This document shows positions 55,103 to 64,000 of a stretch of DNA of 64,000 bases, in pieces. The DNA is from Streptomyces beigongshangae. GTDB lineage: Bacteria > Actinomycetota > Actinomycetes > Streptomycetales > Streptomycetaceae. Both the position numbers and the translations under genes were made by a program. The notes under the pieces were generated by a model that saw nothing but the letters and a program-made list of their open reading frames with translations, was not told where the DNA came from and searched no databases. The stretch covers positions 1 through 64,000 of the forward strand of contig NZ_JAHKJW010000004.1 of NCBI RefSeq assembly GCF_019710745.1, given 5' to 3'. The first letter of the stretch is position 1. Every line of letters begins with the position of its first letter.

Positions 55103-56872
55103 ATGCATCGGTACAGGTCCCACACCTGCGGCGAGCTCCGCGCCTCTGACGTCGGCAGCGACGTCCGGCTGAGCGGCTGGCTGCACAATCGCCGAGACCT
55201 GGGCGGCATCCTCTTCATCGACCTGCGCGACCACTACGGCATCACGCAGCTCGTCGCCCGCCCCGGCACCCCTGCGTACGAGGCCCTCGACAAGGTCTCC
55301 AAGGAGTCCACGGTCCGGGTCGACGGCAAGGTCGTCTCGCGCGGCGCGGAGAACGTGAACGCGGAGCTGCCGACCGGTGAGGTCGAGGTCGAGGTGGGCG
55401 AGGTCGAGCTGCTCGGCGCCGCCGCCCCGCTGCCCTTCACGATCAACACCGAGGACGGTGTGAACGAGGAGCGGCGCCTGGAGTACCGCTTCCTCGACCT
55501 GCGCCGTGAGCGCATGCACCGCAACATCCTGCTGCGTACGTCGGTCATCTCGGCCATCCGCCACAAGATGACGGCGCTGGGCTTCAACGAGATGGCGACC
55601 CCGATCCTCAGCGCGACCTCCCCCGAGGGCGCGCGCGACTTCGTCGTCCCGTCCCGGCTGAACCCGGGTCGCTTCTACGCCCTGCCCCAGGCCCCGCAGC
55701 AGTTCAAGCAGCTGCTGATGATCTCGGGCTTCGACCGGTACTTCCAGATCGCGCCCTGCTTCCGTGACGAGGACGCGCGCGCGGACCGTTCGCCGGGCGA
55801 GTTCTACCAGCTCGACGTGGAGATGTCCTTCGTCGAGCAGGAGGACGTCTTCCAGCCGATCGAGAAGCTCATGACCGAGCTGTTCGAGGAGTTCGGCAAC
55901 GGCCGCCACGTCACCTCGCCGTTCCCGCGGATCCCGTTCCGCGAGTCGATGCTCAAGTACGGCTCCGACAAGCCGGACCTGCGGGCCCAGCTGGAGCTCG
56001 TCGACATCACCGACGTCTTCGAGGGCTCGGAGTTCAAGGCATTCGCCGGCAAGCACGTACGGGCGCTGCCGGTGCCGGACGTGTCCGCGCAGCCCCGGAA
56101 GTTCTTCGACCAGCTCGGCGACTACGCGGTCTCGCAGGGCGCGAAGGGCCTGGCCTGGGTGCGGGTGGCCGAGGACGGTTCGCTGACCGGCCCGATCGCC
56201 AAGTTCCTCACCGAGGAGAACGTCGCCGAGCTGACGAAGCGCCTGTCGCTGGCGGCCGGCCATGCGGTGTTCTTCGGCGCGGGCGAGTTCGACGAGGTCT
56301 CCAAGATCATGGGTGCGGTGCGCGTCGAGGCCGCCAAGCGCGCCGGGCACTTCGAAGAGGGCGTCTTCCGCTTCTGCTGGATCGTCGACTTCCCGATGTA
56401 CGAGAAGGACGAGGAGACCGGGAAGATCGACTTCTCGCACAACCCGTTCTCGATGCCGCAGGGCGGTCTGGAGGCCCTGGAGACCCAGGACCCCCTGGAC
56501 ATCCTGGGCTGGCAGTACGACATCGTCTGCAACGGCGTCGAGCTGTCCTCCGGCGCCATCCGGAACCACGAGCCGGAGATCATGCTCAAGGCCTTCGAGA
56601 TCGCGGGCTACGACCGGGAGACGGTCGAGGAGCAGTTCGCGGGCATGCTGCGCGCGTTCCGCTTCGGCGCACCTCCGCACGGCGGCATCGCCCCCGGTGT
56701 GGACCGTATCGTCATGCTCCTCGCCGACGAGCCGAACATCCGGGAGACCATCGCGTTCCCGCTGAACGGCAACGCGCAGGACCTCATGATGGGCGCGCCG
56801 ACGGAACTGGACGAGACGCGGCTGCGTGAGCTGCACATCTCGGTGCGCAAGCCGGTGAACCAGGCGAAGTAG
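55103..56872 (+). CDS. aspS: Aspartyl-tRNA synthetase
   Basis: 589 aa, the length of bacterial-type AspRS with a GAD insertion. The N-terminal OB-fold anticodon-binding domain ([20 protein letters not shown]) precedes the class II core: motif 2 [20 protein letters not shown] and motif 3 [15 protein letters not shown]. The GAD insertion is at ~285-420. Family knowledge: it charges tRNA-Asp; whether it also mischarges tRNA-Asn cannot be read here. The start is ATG 55103, with a weak GGAT upstream. A strong terminator follows. Confidence 0.97.
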
Positions 56873-56914: not shown

Positions 56915-56952
56915 TGGGGCGGTGCCACCTCTCCGGAGGTGGCACCGCCCCA
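56915..56952. terminator. Terminator after aspS
   Basis: TGGGGCGGTGCCACCT (56915-56930) pairs with AGGTGGCACCGCCCCA (56937-56952), 16 bp, between the convergent aspS and a small minus-strand gene. Confidence 0.88.
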
Positions 56953-57675: not shown

Positions 57676-57846
57676 ATGGCCCTCAGCACGGAGAACCAGC
57701 ACAAGCCGGTCCGCAAGTCGCTGACCGAGCGCACCCAGGACGAACTCGAGATCGCAGGGTTCGACGAGGTCGAGACCCCCGAGGCGGACATCGTCAGCCT
57801 CGGCGGCGCCAGCTACACCAAGATGCTCGGCAAGATCTACTCCTGA
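57676..57846 (+). CDS. Candidate RiPP precursor peptide
   Basis: 56 aa with a good ribosome binding site (AGAGGAAG, about seven bases upstream). An N-terminal leader-like half (MALSTENQHKPVRKSLTER then TQDELEIAGFDEVETPEAD) ends in a Leu-Gly-Gly-Ala (SLGGA) before a short C-terminal segment ASYTKMLGKIYS. The DELEIAGFDEVE stretch has the acidic, amphipathic look of a leader bound by PqqD-like domains; Gly-Gly-Ala suggests a possible cleavage point. There is no Cys. Residues that could be modified in the core are two Tyr, Ser, Thr, Lys, Met. It is first in a co-directional operon with a PqqD-like gene next. No known precursor family is recognised. Confidence 0.75.
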   Translation: MALSTENQHKPVRKSLTERTQDELEIAGFDEVETPEADIVSLGGASYTKMLGKIYS

Positions 57847-57853
57847 CGGCTCC

Positions 57854-57890
57854 CTCGGGGCTCCGGCGCGCGAGACACCGGAGCCCCGAG
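57854..57890 (+). terminator. Hairpin between precursor and biosynthetic genes (attenuator candidate)
   Basis: CTCGGGGCTCCGG (57854-57866) pairs perfectly with CCGGAGCCCCGAG (57878-57890), loop of 11. It begins 8 bases after the precursor stop. RiPP operons commonly use such a leaky terminator to make more precursor than enzymes; a stabilising 3' stem is the alternative. No T-run immediately follows. Confidence 0.75.
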
Positions 57891-57931
57891 ATCCGCCGTG
57901 CCGGACCCCGGAGAGCGAGAGCCGTTTTTCG

Positions 57932-58168
57932 ATGCAGCGCATCACCTCGGAACTGCCCTACTTGGACCAGGCAGGCCATGTCTACGTGCCGCTCGCCGGA
58001 CCGGCACGCTCCTGTCTGAAGCTCAACCGCCACGCGTCCCGGATCTGGCGTGAGGCCCTGCGCCGCCCCGTGGACCTCGAAGACCTGCCCGCGCCGGACC
58101 GGGACTTCCTGCTCGGCCTCACCCGGCGCGGCGTCCTGCACACCGCGCCCGCGCCGGAGGGAGGGTGA
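57932..58168 (+). CDS. PqqD-like peptide-recognition (RRE) protein
   Basis: 78 aa. Pattern of a PqqD/RRE winged helix: two short beta strands (ISSELPYLDQAG-like start, HVYVPLAGPARSCLKLN), the Leu-Asn-x-x-Ala turn (LKLNRHASRIWREAL) and a C-terminal helix with LTRRGVLHTAP. Family knowledge: RREs bind the leader of a RiPP precursor and present it to the modifying enzymes, notably radical SAM proteins (as in PQQ and mycofactocin biosynthesis). It is followed two bases later by the radical SAM gene. The Shine-Dalgarno is distant. Confidence 0.78.
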   Translation: MQRITSELPYLDQAGHVYVPLAGPARSCLKLNRHASRIWREALRRPVDLEDLPAPDRDFLLGLTRRGVLHTAPAPEGG

Positions 58169-58169
58169 G

Positions 58170-59999
58170 ATGGGTCCGCCGACACAGCCGGCCATCGCCT
58201 TCGTCAACCCCTCGGTCGGCTTCTCCGACCGCCGCAAGTCCAAGCCGATCGGGCTGGCCTACATCATGGCCTACCTGGAGAAACACGGATTCCCCAGCTC
58301 GGGCTTCGACTTCGGGGACTCCGAGGACGACGCCGTCGAGCTCGCCGGGACCTACGGTCTGGACCGCTTCGACGTCGTCGGGTTCTCCGTCTACAACGAG
58401 TCGCTCCGCGCGGCGGTCGCGATGGCCGGGTGGATCAAGAGCCGTCGCCCGGACTGCCTGATCGTCCTCGGCGGCCCGCACGCGACCGCCGTGCACGAGC
58501 ACATCCTGCGCCGCCATCCCTGCGTCGACGTCGTGGTCCGGCGCGAGGGCGAGGAGGCGATGCTCGAACTCGTCCGCGGCCTCGGCGACCGGGCCCGGCT
58601 GACCGGAATCAGGGGCACCACCTGGCGTGCTCCCGACGGCAGCGGGGATGACGGCAGCGGGGATGACGGCAGCGGGGATGACGGCAGCCGTGGCGGCGGC
58701 GATGACAGCAGTGGCGGCACTGGAACCGGCACCGGCGCCGTTGGCCTGCTGGTCAACAAGGACCGGGATCTCGTGCCCGACCTCGATCAGATCCCGTTCC
58801 CCGACGCCGAGTTCACCTCGCACTCCGGCTACCCCGACCTCACGTACTACGACGAGGTCCAGGGCAGGCTGAAGGCGGCGCTGACGATCTGCAGCAGCCG
58901 CAGCTGCCCGTACAACTGCTCCTTCTGCGGTGTGCTGACCATCGGACGCACGTACCGGTCGCGCGAGGCGGAGCGGGTCGTCGCGGAACTGTTCCACTTC
59001 CGTGAGCGGCACGGCGTCACCTACGAGCACGTCTACTTCAGCGACGCCAACTTCTTCGTGTCGCCGGCCCGTGCCCTGGAGGTCGCCGAGGCGCTGTACG
59101 AGGCCGATCCGCGGGTCACCTTCAGTTTCGGCACCCGGGTCAACCAGATCCTCAAGGCAGCCGAGGTCCTGCCCCGCCTCAAGGAGTGCGGGCTGCGGTT
59201 CATCGAACTCGGCATCGAGTCCGCCTCGGAACCGGTCCTGGAACGGCTCGCCAAGCATGTGAAGCCCGAGGTCAACATGGCGGCCGTACGCCTGCTGCGG
59301 CGTCTCGGCATCGAGATCTCCCTCGACTTCATCATGCTGGACCCGGCCACCACCCTGGCCGACATCCGCGCCAACATGGAGTTCCTGCGCGAGGCCGGCT
59401 TCTACGACTACGTACCGCACGACCACCTCTACACCGCCCTCGTGCTCTACGAGGGCACGCCGATCCGCGACTTCTACGCCCGGCGGTTCGGTGTCGTCTT
59501 CGACCCGGACGACCTGCCCAACCCCTTCGCGCTCTTCGAACTGACCGAGGTGCAGCGGTTCAGCGACACGCTGCGGGCCTTCCGGAAGCAGTGGCAGGGC
59601 CGGATCGACCGTGCCCTGGCCCAGGGGGAACTCGCGCTCGCCTCCCTCGGGGACGATTTCGCGGAGGACGGCTCCCGGAGGGACGGCCCCCCGGAGGTCG
59701 GCTCCCGGAGAGCCGGCTCCCCGGGGTACGGCGAGGGCTTCTCCCGCATGTCGCACGCCCGGCTGCAGCTCGACGTGGTGTCGCTGCGCCACGCGCCCAA
59801 CCTCTTGGCGGAGCGGCTGCTGACGGACGCCGAAGCCGGGTTCCCGCTGCTGGACCGGGGCGGACTGGAAGCTCTGCTGCCCTGCCCGGGACACGACGGT
59901 GTCCCCCTGCACGACCTGATCGCACGCACCGAGGCCATGGCGCGGGAGGCGGGCTGCGCGCGGGCTCCGGACGCCGTCGGCCCGCACGGGAGGGACTAG
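58170..59999 (+). CDS. Cobalamin-binding radical SAM enzyme
   Basis: 609 aa. N-terminal B12-binding domain (~5-140: FVNPSVGFSDRRKSKPIGLA, VVGFSVYNES, CLIVLGGPHATAVHEHILRR). The radical SAM core carries the CxxxCxxC cluster at Cys246-Cys250-Cys253 (SCPYNCSFCGV). An inserted linker (~157-188) contains three GDDGS units. HVYFSDANFFVSPARALEVA and IELGIESASEPVLERLAKHV are core motifs. Family knowledge: such enzymes carry out C-methylation, cyclisation or ring-contraction on unactivated carbons. Start ATG 58170, preceded by GGAGGGAGGGTGAG. The C-terminal ~90 residues are outside the core and contain GSRRDGPPEVGSRRAGSPGY. Confidence 0.88.
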   Translation: MGPPTQPAIAFVNPSVGFSDRRKSKPIGLAYIMAYLEKHGFPSSGFDFGDSEDDAVELAGTYGLDRFDVVGFSVYNESLRAAVAMAGWIKSRRPDCLIVLGGPHATAVHEHILRRHPCVDVVVRREGEEAMLELVRGLGDRARLTGIRGTTWRAPDGSGDDGSGDDGSGDDGSRGGGDDSSGGTGTGTGAVGLLVNKDRDLVPDLDQIPFPDAEFTSHSGYPDLTYYDEVQGRLKAALTICSSRSCPYNCSFCGVLTIGRTYRSREAERVVAELFHFRERHGVTYEHVYFSDANFFVSPARALEVAEALYEADPRVTFSFGTRVNQILKAAEVLPRLKECGLRFIELGIESASEPVLERLAKHVKPEVNMAAVRLLRRLGIEISLDFIMLDPATTLADIRANMEFLREAGFYDYVPHDHLYTALVLYEGTPIRDFYARRFGVVFDPDDLPNPFALFELTEVQRFSDTLRAFRKQWQGRIDRALAQGELALASLGDDFAEDGSRRDGPPEVGSRRAGSPGYGEGFSRMSHARLQLDVVSLRHAPNLLAERLLTDAEAGFPLLDRGGLEALLPCPGHDGVPLHDLIARTEAMAREAGCARAPDAVGPHGRD

Positions 60000-60003
60000 C
60001 CGC

Positions 60004-60915
60004 ATGACCGCGACAGTCAGCACGAGCATCACAGGCAGCACGAGGTACCCGATCCCCGAACTGGGCCCGCCCGGTGTCCACGGGATCTGCTTCAGCTGCG
60101 ACTCGATCAAGGGCATGGACACCGCCGAGGAGACGGCCATCCGGCTCGGCTCCACCGCGACCTGGTACGGCGTCGGAATCCTGGCCACCGACCAGGAACT
60201 GGCGGAGTACTGGGCGGAGTTCTGCCGCCGGCACGGACTGCACGCGCTGTTCCACCCGCTCGACCTGGACGTGTGCGGTACCGACCCGCTCGACGACCGG
60301 CTGCTGCGCTCGATCGGGAAACGCGCCGACGAACTGGGCTCACCCTGGCTCAACATCGACCTGGCGATGTGGGTCCGCGAGGGGGAGACGCTGCTGGAGT
60401 CCCTGGTGCCCATGGCACTCGTCGACGAGGCCGTCGACCGGGCGGTGGACCGGATCAAGCACGCCCAGGACGTCATCGGCCGTCCGCTGACCGTCGAGAA
60501 CGCCCCCTATCCGTTCGTGGTCGGCGACCGGGACATCCTCACCCTGATGACACGGATCGCGGAGCGGGCCGACTGCCTCATGACCATCGACGTCGGGCAC
60601 CTCTACGGACTGAGGACGCAGTGCGGTCTGCCGCCGGTGCTGCCGAGCGACGACGACATCGCCTGGGACCGGGTCGTCGAGGCGCACATGAGCGGCACGT
60701 TCCTGCGCCGCTTCGAGGGCGGGGTGCGCGTGGTCGACGACAAGCACGACTGGCCGGTCGGCGAGGAGGTGTGGGAACTCGCCGACGCGCTGCTCCCCCG
60801 CGCTCCCCGGCTGCGGTCGGTGATGGCCGAGGCGGAGGGCATGAGCGCGGACGAACTGACGAGCAGCGTACGGCGCTTCGCCGCCCGCGCCGACCACTGG
60901 TGGAGCGCCTCGTGA
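60004..60915 (+). CDS. DUF692-like multinuclear iron oxidase (MNIO candidate)
   Basis: 303 aa, TIM-barrel. The MNIO/DUF692 landmarks are visible: HPLDLDVCGTDPLDDRLL, RPLTVENAPYPF (Glu165-Asn166), CLMTIDVGHLYGLR (Asp196, His199), VVEAHMSGTF (Glu, His228) and VVDDKHDWPVGEEVWELADA (His248). Family knowledge: MbnB and TglH, members of this family, use two or three irons to oxidise RiPP residues, mostly Cys. The barrel also resembles xylose-isomerase-like epimerases, so the call is by motif order. Four bases separate it from the radical SAM stop. Confidence 0.75.
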   Translation: MTATVSTSITGSTRYPIPELGPPGVHGICFSCDSIKGMDTAEETAIRLGSTATWYGVGILATDQELAEYWAEFCRRHGLHALFHPLDLDVCGTDPLDDRLLRSIGKRADELGSPWLNIDLAMWVREGETLLESLVPMALVDEAVDRAVDRIKHAQDVIGRPLTVENAPYPFVVGDRDILTLMTRIAERADCLMTIDVGHLYGLRTQCGLPPVLPSDDDIAWDRVVEAHMSGTFLRRFEGGVRVVDDKHDWPVGEEVWELADALLPRAPRLRSVMAEAEGMSADELTSSVRRFAARADHWWSAS

Positions 60916-61787
60916 CCCATGAAACGGTTCTCGACGCCTCCGACGCCTCCGATCCGTCGGCCGCCCCGGCCGCCCCTCTCGACTACGTCAGGGTGACCGA
61001 CACGACTTGGCGCGTCCTCAACGCGACCGCCGGGCGGCGCGCCGAACTGCTCGACGCGCTGCCCCCGGCCGAGCGCGCGGTCGTCGCCGCGGGCACGTCG
61101 GGGCCGGGCTTCGCCATGGAGCAGGCCCGGCGCCGCAAGACCGTCGCCAACGTGCTGAACGTCAGTTTCCCGGTCACCTTCTTCGCGTACTACGGGCGGA
61201 CCGGCGCGGAGGGCCTGCACACCTTCCTGGACAGCGGGTTCTGGCAGCGCAGGCCCGCCCAGCCCGGGTCCGTGTTCCCGCCCGCGGCCACCGCGTCGGC
61301 CGCCTTCGCCGGGTTCCTGCGCGCCTCCGACTGGCTCGCCCGGCAGGAGGACTGGGTCGGCGAGGCCTTCGCCTTCGAGGACGCCCACCTCTTCGGCGGC
61401 GCCACGGCCGGCCCGCGCCCGTGCCCCGCCGGCCGCCCCCGCCTGGTGTCCGGCGCCTGGACCGCGGAGGCCACGTTCGACGTACCCGCGTACGGCGGGC
61501 TGCTGCGCGAGCGGGGCGCCGTCGATCCGTGGACCGAGGCGTTGCTGATGGTCAAACGCCGTCCCGAACCGCTCGCCGTCGTGTCGGTCCCGGCCGGGGA
61601 GCGTATCCGCCGGGTGCGGCTCACGGGTGACACCGTCGCCGCGTTGCGCTGGCTGTGGGACACCGGCGTACCGGTGCCCGAGGGCGCCACCGGGGCGCCC
61701 GCCTACGCGAGGGCGGTCGGTGCCGGACTGGTGGACGCCGCCGGACCGGTGGACACCGCCGGACCGGTGGACGGGGCCGCTCGGTGA
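60912..61787 (+). CDS. Uncharacterised RiPP-cluster protein (possible MNIO partner)
   Basis: 291 aa, family not recognised. It starts at a GTG that overlaps the DUF692 stop and ends overlapping the transporter start, so its product is needed in step with both. Visible features: an Ala/Asp/Ser tail (~1-20), a helical segment (RAELLDALPPAERAVVAAGT), AMEQARRRKTVANVLNVSF, PVTFFAYYGRTGAEGLHTFL, a WQRRPAQPGSVFPPAAT stretch, then DWLARQEDWVGEAFAFEDAH and a C-terminal PVDTAGPVD repeat. Known MNIOs act with an adjacent partner protein (MbnC, TglI); position is the only reason to suggest the same here. Confidence 0.7.
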   Translation: MTHETVLDASDASDPSAAPAAPLDYVRVTDTTWRVLNATAGRRAELLDALPPAERAVVAAGTSGPGFAMEQARRRKTVANVLNVSFPVTFFAYYGRTGAEGLHTFLDSGFWQRRPAQPGSVFPPAATASAAFAGFLRASDWLARQEDWVGEAFAFEDAHLFGGATAGPRPCPAGRPRLVSGAWTAEATFDVPAYGGLLRERGAVDPWTEALLMVKRRPEPLAVVSVPAGERIRRVRLTGDTVAALRWLWDTGVPVPEGATGAPAYARAVGAGLVDAAGPVDTAGPVDGAAR

Positions 61788-63184
61788 CCTCCGGGACCCC
61801 ACGGCCTCCCGACCAGGCTTCCGTTCAGCAGGTCCAGCAGGTCCAGCAGGTCCAGCAGGTCCAGCATGCCGAGCGTGTCCGGCACGTCCGCCGGGGCTAT
61901 CTGCTGGTCTCCGGTCTCGACTGCTTCGCCGACATGCTCCTCACCGTGACGTCGGTCCTGCTGTTGCAGTCGCTGGGCATGGGCTCGGGCGCGGTGTTCG
62001 CCCTGATCGCCGCGGTGTGGATCGTGGAGGGGGTCTCCGAGATCCCCACCGGCGTCCTGGCCGACCTGCTCGGCCGTCGCGTCTCGGTCGCGATCAGCTT
62101 CGTCCTGCGGGCGATCGGCTACGGCGCCCTGTTCTTCAGCGGCGACGTGTACGTCGCCGCCGCCGGGGTCCTCCTCGCCGCGCTGGGCGGCACCTTCGCC
62201 TCCGGCGCCCTGGAGGCGTGGGCCGTGGACGAGACGAGGGCCGGGGATCCGCGCGGCCTGGACCGGCTCTTCGCCCAGGGCAGGATCGCCGAGAACACCG
62301 GCCTCGTCCTGGGCACGCTGGCCGGTGCCGCGCTGGGCACGCTCGACCTGACGCTGCCCCAGATCGTCGCGGGCGTCTGCTGCGCGCTGGCGGCCGTCCT
62401 GTCCCTGCGGCTCATGACCGGCGAATCACGCCCGGACGGGTCGAAAGGCCCGGACCGGACAGACCGTCCTCGTGAGGCGTTCGCCCCGCGACTGCGGGCA
62501 TCGTGCGGCGAGGTCATGACCGGGACCCGGCTCACCCTGCGGGGCGACAAGGTGCTGATCGCCCTGATCGTCGCCACCGCACTGCTGTGGCTGTTCCGGG
62601 GCGTCCCCGGCGTGCAGTGGACGGTGGTGTACGAGGGACTCGTCGGCGGAAACCTGCTGGTGCTCGGTGCCATGCGCAGCGTCGGCTCCCTGCTGGAGAT
62701 CCCGCTGCTCGGCTGGACCCTGAGATTCCAGAAACGCCGGGCCGCCGCGCGCCGGACCGTCATCGTCACCGCTTCCGCGGCCGGCGCCCTCGCCCTCGCC
62801 GGTGCCGCCGTCGTGCGGGAACCGGCCGTCTCCGTCGTCTGTTACGTGTGCTTCTCCACGGCGTTCGGTCTGTGCATGCCCGGTGTGCGGGCGGCCGTGA
62901 ACGAGCGGATCGAGAGCGGGCACCGCGCCACCGTGCTGTCCGTGGCCTCGCTGTTCAACAGCCTGTTCACCGGCGGCGGGCTGGTCCTGACCGGCCTGGC
63001 CGTCGACGGACTCGGCAGCGTCGTCCCGGCCTGGCCGCTCGCGGCGGCCGGCTTCGGCCTCGCGGGCCTGTGGGTGGCGTCCCTGGCCGCGCGCCGGGAC
63101 ACCGCATCCCCCGCCGGACCGACCCGGGAGACGCAGACACCGGCGCCGCCGCCGACGGGCCCTCAAGAGGTGGGCGCGCCATGA
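61784..63184 (+). CDS. MFS transporter of the RiPP cluster
   Basis: 466 aa. A Gln-Val repeat (QQVQQVQQVQQVQHAERVRH) is followed by about 12 membrane helices; EIPTGVLADLLGRRVSVAIS is the MFS motif A between TM2 and TM3. Other helices: VIVTASAAGALALAGAAVVR, FSTAFGLCMPGVRAAVNERI, LFNSLFTGGGLVLTGLAVDG. Sequence type is that of drug/metabolite exporters. As part of the coupled operon (GTGA overlap upstream, ATGA overlap downstream) it would export the mature peptide product or give self-protection. Confidence 0.88.
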   Translation: MTSGTPRPPDQASVQQVQQVQQVQQVQHAERVRHVRRGYLLVSGLDCFADMLLTVTSVLLLQSLGMGSGAVFALIAAVWIVEGVSEIPTGVLADLLGRRVSVAISFVLRAIGYGALFFSGDVYVAAAGVLLAALGGTFASGALEAWAVDETRAGDPRGLDRLFAQGRIAENTGLVLGTLAGAALGTLDLTLPQIVAGVCCALAAVLSLRLMTGESRPDGSKGPDRTDRPREAFAPRLRASCGEVMTGTRLTLRGDKVLIALIVATALLWLFRGVPGVQWTVVYEGLVGGNLLVLGAMRSVGSLLEIPLLGWTLRFQKRRAAARRTVIVTASAAGALALAGAAVVREPAVSVVCYVCFSTAFGLCMPGVRAAVNERIESGHRATVLSVASLFNSLFTGGGLVLTGLAVDGLGSVVPAWPLAAAGFGLAGLWVASLAARRDTASPAGPTRETQTPAPPPTGPQEVGAP

Positions 63185-64000
63185 CCGCCGCCGCTTCTCC
63201 CGTTCCCGCCGCTGCCGACGACGCGTACGTCGAGGACCTGCTCGCCGATCTCCAGCTGGAGCGGGCCGGGCTGCCCGGCCGGAACCGGAATCCGGTACCG
63301 GCGGCCCTGCGAGCCGTCCAGGCCGCCGACGAACTGGACGGCCTGGGTCTTTCCCGGTTCGTCGCCGAGCTCCTGGGCGGGACGGCACCCGTGCCCGCCC
63401 CCACGGCCGTACTCGACCTGGAGGCCGACGAGGAGGGCAGGCGGGCCTCGTACGAGGTCTGGTGCGCGGAGGCGCGCGAGCTGACCGGGGAAGTCTGGCG
63501 GTGGCTGGCCGACCGGCGCCGCGCCTCCGGTGAACTGCCCTGGTGGTGCGGCGGGTCGGCGTTCCCGCTGCCCCGCGAGTCCGTACGGCGGCTCGCCGGG
63601 ATGGCGCCCCCGGTGCCGGACCTCTCGGAGACCGCCGAGACCTGGGCCCACCGAGCCGGACCGACCAGCACGGCCGCCACTACCGCCATCGCGGAGTACA
63701 ACTGGCGCTGGCTGCTGCTGGGCAAGGGGGCGCTGGGGCCGCACGACGGCGGCATCCGGCCGCCGGGACTGCCCGAGCTGAACGAGTTGATCACCCTGCT
63801 CGTCGGAGAGGCACGGCGGCGCGGACTGCTGCCGCTCGCCCACCGGGTGCGGGTGCTGCGGCGCCCGAACACCCCGTCGATGGTCATGCCCGTACGGCTG
63901 CCCGGTTCCTCACTGCTCTCCCTGCCGACCGCCGTCACTCCGGTGACGGTCCAGTACGTGCAGCACGAGCTGGCCCACCTCGCCGAGCACGCGCTGCGTC
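63181..64000 (+). CDS. HExxH-motif protein (putative metallopeptidase), 3' truncated by window
   Basis: 273 codons visible; the gene runs off the right edge. A helical N-terminus (AADDAYVEDLLADLQLERAG) and many Trp (VWRWLADRR, LPWWCGG, YNWRWLLLGKG). Near the edge is VQHELAHLAEHALR, with the zinc-protease HExxH motif at residues 262-266. No M3, M4 or M50 family is recognised, so I do not assign one. The ATGA overlap with the MFS gene places it in the operon. It could be the leader peptidase of the cluster, or a further maturation protein. The third metal ligand, if any, lies beyond the window. Confidence 0.7.
   Translation, partial: MTAAASPVPAAADDAYVEDLLADLQLERAGLPGRNRNPVPAALRAVQAADELDGLGLSRFVAELLGGTAPVPAPTAVLDLEADEEGRRASYEVWCAEARELTGEVWRWLADRRRASGELPWWCGGSAFPLPRESVRRLAGMAPPVPDLSETAETWAHRAGPTSTAATTAIAEYNWRWLLLGKGALGPHDGGIRPPGLPELNELITLLVGEARRRGLLPLAHRVRVLRRPNTPSMVMPVRLPGSSLLSLPTAVTPVTVQYVQHELAHLAEHALR

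What the first reader, a model, noticed from the sequence alone, without database searches (positions are those of the whole stretch)
57676..64000. Candidate undescribed RiPP operon: precursor, PqqD-like RRE, B12 radical SAM, DUF692 oxidase, unknown protein, MFS, HExxH protein
The genes from the DUF692-like enzyme onward overlap by GTGA/ATGA, and all co-directional genes are within a few bases except at the precursor/RRE gap. Seen directly: a 56-codon ORF with a good ribosome binding site, CxxxCxxC plus B12-domain motifs, MNIO-type residue order, a transporter and HExxH. Known: RREs, B12 radical SAM enzymes and MNIOs are each found in RiPP pathways, and a few described pathways pair B12 radical SAM with MNIO. 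I do not know one with this gene set and a Cys-free precursor ending ASYTKMLGKIYS. The right end of the operon is outside the window.
Basis: partly seen in the sequence, partly recalled or inferred. Interest (0 to 1): 0.92.

Follow-up and report, generated by a model that had tools for sequence, protein, structure and literature searches.

The report
Undescribed Streptomyces peptide-tailoring operon
This Streptomyces operon encodes a small precursor peptide whose C-terminal half is almost unchanged among the relatives found, next to a B12/radical-SAM enzyme and an iron oxygenase that are predicted to modify it into a likely exported peptide of a probably new class.

Summary
The window carries a seven-gene operon: 56-aa precursor, 78-aa small protein D, B12-radical SAM enzyme, MNIO (DUF692), MNIO-partner-like protein X, MFS transporter, HExxH protein (ends at contig position 64509). 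The same seven genes lie in the same order in four other loci. Precursor homologues vary at the N-terminus, but residues 23-56 are nearly fixed, with core SLGxASYTKMLGKIY. In 392 Streptomyces genomes the precursor and the HExxH protein occur in the same three.

The four other loci carry an eighth gene, a JmjC oxygenase, missing here. One relative (G313) keeps precursor, D, radical SAM enzyme, transporter and HExxH protein but lacks MNIO and X and has an alpha-KG-HExxH peptide hydroxylase instead. I infer a fixed radical-SAM module and an exchangeable hydroxylase module.

The logic resembles biphenomycin and aminopyruvatide biosynthesis, but precursor and gene set differ and no curated MNIO or radical-SAM model reaches its cut-off. 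Best reading: a new RiPP class; all chemistry is predicted. RRE assignments for D and X failed the sequence tests and stay open.

The parts
57676..57846 (+). Precursor peptide A, 56 aa; conserved block ELEIAGFDEVETPEADIV (presumed leader) and core SLGGASYTKMLGKIYS (leader/core border inferred)
   Evidence: 25 homologues; window plus 24 of them aligned, P0010 left out for its longer N-terminus
57854..57890 (+). 13-bp hairpin just after the precursor stop; may set precursor above enzyme expression (inferred)
   Evidence: Hairpin in the same place in five of five MNIO-type loci with changed but paired stems; no comparable one in G313
57932..58168 (+). D, 78-aa small protein, RRE-like by pattern only; presumed to guide the radical SAM enzyme
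   Evidence: Conserved in all six clusters read, 40-91% to the window's; no family match; not significant against PqqD
58170..59999 (+). B12-binding radical SAM enzyme, 609 aa
   Evidence: Pfam PF02310 and PF04055; 70 homologues at E <= 1e-60 including itself; no NCBIfam cut-off reached among the 25 of 26 families shown
60004..60915 (+). MNIO (DUF692, PF05114) oxygenase, 303 aa, with full putative iron-ligand set
   Evidence: PF05114 90 bits; H84, D119, E165, D196, H199, H228, D246, H248, E276 invariant in five orthologues, mapped by order and spacing to the PbsC ligands quoted in PMC12257519
60912..61787 (+). X, presumed MNIO partner protein
   Evidence: Overlaps the MNIO gene, present in the five MNIO-type loci, not found in G313; 18 homologues; weak DUF4072 similarity below its cut-off
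61784..63184 (+). MFS transporter, presumed exporter
   Evidence: PF07690 73 bits; 41% relative in the G313 cluster
63181..64000 (+). HExxH protein, presumed leader peptidase; continues to contig position 64509 (442 aa)
   Evidence: HELAH and, 25 residues on, SEGWALLLE invariant in six sequences; found in the same three of 392 genomes as the precursor

Best explanation
The operon encodes a conserved precursor peptide together with a B12-radical SAM enzyme and an MNIO oxygenase that are predicted to tailor its core SLGGASYTKMLGKIYS, which makes it a likely new class of ribosomally made, modified peptide (RiPP). Predicted order: the conserved block ELEIAGFDEVETPEADIV acts as leader; D hands it to the radical SAM enzyme, which makes a new C-C bond in the part of the core shared with G313 (S-L-G-x-A-S-Y-x-K-M-L), most likely a C-methylation at or near Tyr47; X hands the leader to the MNIO, which hydroxylates a core residue; in the four other MNIO-type clusters a JmjC oxygenase would add a further oxidation that this strain lacks; the HExxH protein would cut the leader off and the MFS protein would export the product. 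Shown: genes, order, conservation, co-occurrence, and the presence of an alpha-KG-HExxH hydroxylase where MNIO and X are missing (one cluster, G313). Inferred: every chemical step, the leader/core border, the pairing of D and X with their enzymes, cleavage and export.
For: Seven-gene synteny in five loci. Variable N-terminus against near-fixed C-terminal 34 residues (mean majority fraction 0.41 against 0.91). Precursor and HExxH protein in the same 3 of 392 genomes (chance of that 1e-7 if independent). G313 loses MNIO and X together and keeps A, D, rSAM, MFS and HExxH protein, with a TIGR04267 hydroxylase directly upstream (42.3 bits, cut-off 40). JmjC gene in four of five MNIO-type loci. Full MNIO ligand set. 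MNIOs with RRE partners and B12-rSAMs act together in characterised RiPP pathways (PMC12257519, PMC12707348 passages; PMC10635010 abstract).
Against: No chemistry is shown. RRE tests for D and X are negative or not significant. No peptidase family or structure matches the HExxH protein. The alpha-KG-HExxH variant rests on one cluster, just above the model's cut-off. Two of 25 aligned precursors break the aromatic pattern (P0003 has Cys at 47, P0016 Asn at 55), and P0003 is on a 270-kb contig for which no rSAM was linked. Methylation rather than cross-linking is a prior, not a result.
Confidence: 0.72

Rival explanations
1. Biphenomycin-like macrocycle: the MNIO hydroxylates aromatic side chains and the B12-rSAM joins two side chains (Tyr47 with Tyr/Trp55, or Tyr47 with Lys49) by a C-C bond instead of methylating.
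For: In bip/pbs the MNIO makes ortho-tyrosines and the B12-rSAM joins them. Position 47 is Tyr in 24 of 25 rows and position 55 is Tyr or Trp in 24 of 25; K49 is fixed.
Against: No FHAFRF-type motif, arginase or TldD protein in the cluster as read; most B12-rSAMs of RiPP pathways are described as methyltransferases (PMC12707348 passage); P0003 and P0016 lack one of the two aromatic residues.
Confidence: 0.3
2. Peptide-derived redox cofactor or signal of the PQQ/mycofactocin type, cut out of the invariant C-terminus, rather than an exported peptide.
For: The core is kept almost letter for letter across Streptomyces and Wenjunlia; a small protein plus radical SAM enzyme plus peptidase recalls the PQQ and mycofactocin gene sets (recalled).
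Against: Patchy distribution (3 of 392 genomes; 1 of 396 in the phylum draw), an MFS transporter in all six clusters, and no dehydrogenase among the seven genes.
Confidence: 0.08
3. The HExxH protein is a further oxygenase of the alpha-KG-HExxH kind, not the leader peptidase; an outside protease cuts the leader.
For: HExxH proteins of RiPP clusters have turned out to be alpha-KG oxygenases (PMC12636437 passages); no peptidase family matches it.
Against: No TIGR04267 match at E <= 10 and no profile similarity to the G313 hydroxylase; it carries HELAH plus an invariant SEGWALLLE glutamate, a gluzincin-like layout (meaning recalled); G313 has both proteins in one cluster.
Confidence: 0.15

Closest known systems
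Biphenomycin-type clusters bip/bpm/pbs (PMC12707348, PMC12257519, PMC12026744; passages and one section)
   Same: Precursor, B12-rSAM, MNIO plus partner protein, MFS transporter and a metallopeptidase; JmjC and alpha-KG-HExxH hydroxylases also occur in them, as in relatives of this cluster
   Different: Other precursor (FHAFRF motif there), arginase and TldD peptidase there; here a separate small protein D, another HExxH protein, and JmjC and alpha-KG-HExxH not seen together with each other.
Aminopyruvatide cluster apy (PMC10635010 abstract)
   Same: MNIO plus B12-rSAM on one precursor, Tyr-containing core
   Different: P450 and methyltransferase there, none here; MNIO acts on C-terminal Asp there, the core here ends in Ser/Ala; ApyD and ApyH models reach 112 of 750 and 45 of 400 bits here
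Nitrilobacillin (pes) and pfl/pos clusters (PMC13060819, PMC12636437; passages)
   Same: MNIO and alpha-KG-HExxH enzymes both serve as side-chain hydroxylases of RiPP precursors
   Different: Both enzymes act in one cluster there; here they appear as alternatives in different clusters; no B12-rSAM in the passages read
std cluster of Streptomyces thermodiastaticus (PMC13174530, first part)
   Same: Streptomyces, MNIO with RRE partner, MFS permease, strongly conserved C-terminal core without Cys
   Different: YcaO-TfuA and carbamoyltransferase there, SNKEWQE motif; no radical SAM enzyme

Membership tests
RiPP cluster (general) | Short precursor gene conserved next to tailoring enzymes | tested here: met
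RiPP cluster (general) | Peptide product carrying the modifications | not testable with these tools
   Needs expression and mass spectrometry
MNIO superfamily (PF05114) | Family match over cut-off and iron-ligand residues | tested here: met
   90 bits against 25; nine ligands invariant in five orthologues, mapped by spacing to PbsC
Known MNIO subfamilies (BufB, HvfB, ApyH, ChrH, MbnB) | NCBIfam cut-off reached | tested here: not met
   74/310, 64/360, 45/400, 26/600, 11/325 bits
[quoted passage not shown]
Known B12-rSAM subfamilies in NCBIfam (ApyD, rSAM_ocin_1, ArsL and others) | Curated cut-off reached | tested here: not met
   None of the 25 families shown, of 26
PqqD/RRE domain, D | Match to PqqD profile | tested here: inconclusive
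   No Pfam/NCBIfam match; hhalign against three PqqD domains of the own genome E = 0.35; sequence-divergent RREs need a structure, and prediction was off
RRE-containing MNIO partner, X | RRE domain and complex with MNIO | tested here: inconclusive
   hhalign against PqqD E = 0.21; DUF4072 below cut-off; gene adjacency and joint absence in G313 only
Biphenomycin-type cluster | Precursor with FHAFRF/FHTFMF/YHxYxY motif | tested here: not met
   Motif absent from the precursor alignment (motifs)
Biphenomycin-type cluster | MNIO and B12-rSAM orthologous to BipE/BipD | not tested
   Bip sequences could not be reached
alpha-KG-HExxH peptide hydroxylase (TIGR04267), gene upstream of the G313 precursor | Curated cut-off reached | tested here: met
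   42.3 bits against 40
Gluzincin-type peptidase, window HExxH protein | HExxH plus distal Glu, and a peptidase family or structure match | tested here: inconclusive
   Residues invariant in six sequences; no family or PDB sequence match

The most novel reading that the evidence does not exclude
A new RiPP class in which one near-invariant Cys-free core (SLGxASYxKMLGxx[Y/W]) receives a C-C bond from a dedicated B12-radical SAM enzyme and is hydroxylated by exchangeable iron oxygenases: an MNIO with its partner in one branch, an alpha-KG-HExxH enzyme in another, and an optional JmjC oxygenase. MNIO and alpha-KG-HExxH would be natural stand-ins for each other on nearly the same peptide.
Probability: 0.45. 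Interest if true: 0.78.

Novelty: new variant of a known kind. Interest (0 to 1): 0.62.

Why it matters
In the literature searched here, two groups of pathways join an MNIO to a B12-radical SAM enzyme. This would be a third, with its own precursor and HExxH protein and no Cys, C-terminal Asp or FRF motif, so substrate residue and reaction are open and easy to test by co-expression. The natural presence of an alpha-KG-HExxH hydroxylase in place of MNIO and X on nearly the same core is a built-in experiment on which residue these hard-to-predict enzymes oxidise. A core kept almost letter for letter suggests one conserved target or role.

Tried and rejected
Rejected: chance ORF (25 homologues, synteny); bufferin, methanobactin or chryseobasin type (no Cys in the window's precursor; cut-offs not reached); defence system (PADLOC scan of D, X and the HExxH protein: one weak hit, AbiEi for D at E = 0.02); plasmid- or phage-borne system (no plasmid match for rSAM at 1e-50 or the HExxH protein at 1e-5; for the MNIO 144 plasmid records, all under 60% identity, 26-30% in the 20 rows listed; in viral contigs 15 loci with distant rSAMs at 20-31%, not looked at further).

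Nothing gained: PDB sequence searches with D (20 hits, short strands of designed propellers and the like), X (one SSB at E = 0.77) and the HExxH protein; profile comparisons of D, X and the HExxH protein with the G313 hydroxylase and of D with X; PHROGs; promoter scan (no sigma-70-like site); Rfam (no hit over a gathering score). Synonymous changes are fewer in the precursor (0.02-0.11 of same-residue codons) than in the rSAM (0.12-0.23) or MNIO (0.09-0.23), with D between (0.05-0.20); read as codon bias of a strongly expressed gene, not pursued. Not done: comparison with the bip enzymes; contexts of the other rSAM clades of the tree.
Full report
What is there. The window is part of contig C147 of a 9.1-Mb genome. 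A precursor match in a genome of the same genus (G980) falls exactly on the S. tauricus locus L004, so I call the host Streptomyces. Downstream of aspS (55103-56872) and a small reverse-strand ORF, seven co-directional genes follow: precursor A, small protein D, B12-radical SAM enzyme, MNIO, X, MFS transporter, HExxH protein. The last one runs out of the window and ends at C147:64509.

Is it real. The search with A returned 25 homologues, all 25 candidates, with E from 4.2e-24 to 1e-8. The window's A and 24 of them were aligned (P0010, with a longer N-terminus, was left out). The first 22 residues vary freely, the last 34 hardly: mean majority fraction 0.41 against 0.91. S41, L42, G43, A45, K49, M50, L51 and K53 are fixed in 25 of 25 rows, Y47 in 24, Y55 in 22 with two Trp and one Asn. 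All seven genes occur in the same order in L003 (S. phaeochromogenes), L004 (S. tauricus), L005 (Wenjunlia vitaminophila) and L010 (genome G109), with 73-95% identity in the best segments. By equal longest-contig length, an indirect link, 12 of 25 precursors share a contig with a listed rSAM (41 of the 70 compared in the script, the rest by eye) or X homologue; of the other 13, nine lie on contigs under 1.6 kb and four (P0003, P0009, P0021, P0023) stay unlinked.

Distribution. In 392 Streptomyces genomes the precursor is found in 3, the HExxH protein in the same 3, and the MNIO at E <= 1e-20 in 2 of these plus one 25% match in G188. In 20 kb around the G188 match tblastn finds no A, D, X, MFS or HExxH relative, only a distant rSAM (21%, E = 1.5e-7) 6.7 kb away. 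In 394 Streptomycetaceae genomes the precursor is found in 3, the own genome and the places of L004 and L005; in 396 Actinomycetota genomes in 1, the own. The same genomes can recur between draws. The window locus, L003, L004 and L010 lie beside aspS, L005 does not.

The informative variants. In L003, L004, L005 and L010 a JmjC protein follows the HExxH gene (Pfam JmjC_2, 62-67 bits against 22). In the window's genome the HExxH gene is instead followed by the small membrane protein that lies further downstream in L003, L004 and L010, so the JmjC gene and the dioxygenase-domain gene next to it (L003) were probably lost here. G313 has A (core SLGGASYVKMLGRTW), D (43%), rSAM (53%), MFS (41%) and HExxH protein (37%), with 31 bases between rSAM and the longest MFS frame, where MNIO and X would be. 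Five bases upstream of A ends a 501-aa protein that reaches the cut-off of TIGR04267, the alpha-KG-HExxH peptide hydroxylases (42.3 bits against 40). The G313 rSAM is nearly the same as P0064 of S. poriferorum. This variant rests on one cluster.

How it probably works. D stays with the rSAM when MNIO and X are missing, and X is missing with the MNIO: so D would serve the rSAM and X the MNIO, as partner proteins do in characterised MNIO pathways (PMC12707348 and PMC12257519, passages). The MNIO has the full iron-ligand set, mapped by order and spacing, and no Cys in its substrate; a peptide hydroxylase in its place in G313 suggests that it hydroxylates. The rSAM would act on the part of the core common to both branches. 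B12-rSAMs of RiPP pathways mostly methylate (PMC12707348 passage), and in the aminopyruvatide pathway one makes beta-methyltyrosine beside an MNIO (PMC10635010 abstract); in biphenomycin pathways one joins two ortho-tyrosines. I put methylation first and a cross-link second. The HExxH protein has HELAH and an invariant SEGWALLLE 25 residues on, which I recall as gluzincin-like; no family confirms it. A hairpin after the precursor stop, present in five of five MNIO-type loci but not in G313, may help to make more precursor than enzyme; this is inference.

What it is not shown to be. D and X fail the RRE sequence tests tried, X shows only sub-threshold DUF4072 similarity (E = 0.0032 to 0.15), and structure prediction was off. 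No MNIO or rSAM cut-off of NCBIfam is reached. The FHAFRF motif, arginase and TldD peptidase described for biphenomycin clusters are not among the genes read. The core motif appears in no paper of the open-access library. Searches for MNIO with B12/radical SAM list biphenomycin and aminopyruvatide work, other MNIO papers and reviews; most were seen only as listing. Subscription papers are not held, so this is absence in that library only.

Papers: PMC12026744, PMC12257519, PMC12636437, PMC13060819, PMC12452194 and PMC12710340 were seen as passages; PMC12707348 as passages and one section; PMC13174530 as its first part of seven; PMC10635010 as abstract and outline; all others as listing.

Noticed in passing
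L003:14595-15551; L004:14882-15859; L005:14247-15158; L010:13486-14358: JmjC_2 oxygenase gene as eighth gene of the cluster in the four relatives, absent after the HExxH gene in the window's genome.
   Followed up: partly
L014:5770-7272 (G313, minus strand): 501-aa alpha-KG-HExxH peptide hydroxylase (TIGR04267) directly upstream of a precursor of this family in a cluster without MNIO and X.
   Followed up: yes
58635-58690: Tandem GDDGS-type repeat inside the rSAM protein between its B12 and radical SAM domains; at 609 aa the window's protein is longer than the 69 other homologues listed (up to 597 aa).
   Followed up: no
P0003: Precursor with Cys at position 47 and core GAGCTKMLGKTYA on a 270-kb contig for which no rSAM was linked; possibly a decaying cluster.
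   Followed up: no
G188:C88 (L009, L018): MNIO with 25% identity to the window's, in a long frame of 702 codons that runs on past the MNIO part, away from this cluster type.
   Followed up: partly
56916-56951: Strong perfect palindrome after aspS, terminator-like, separating aspS from the operon; only weak Rfam hits.
   Followed up: no
G000:C197:79-873 (L001): A second, canonical MNIO in the same genome, 257 bits to PF05114, at a contig end.
   Followed up: no
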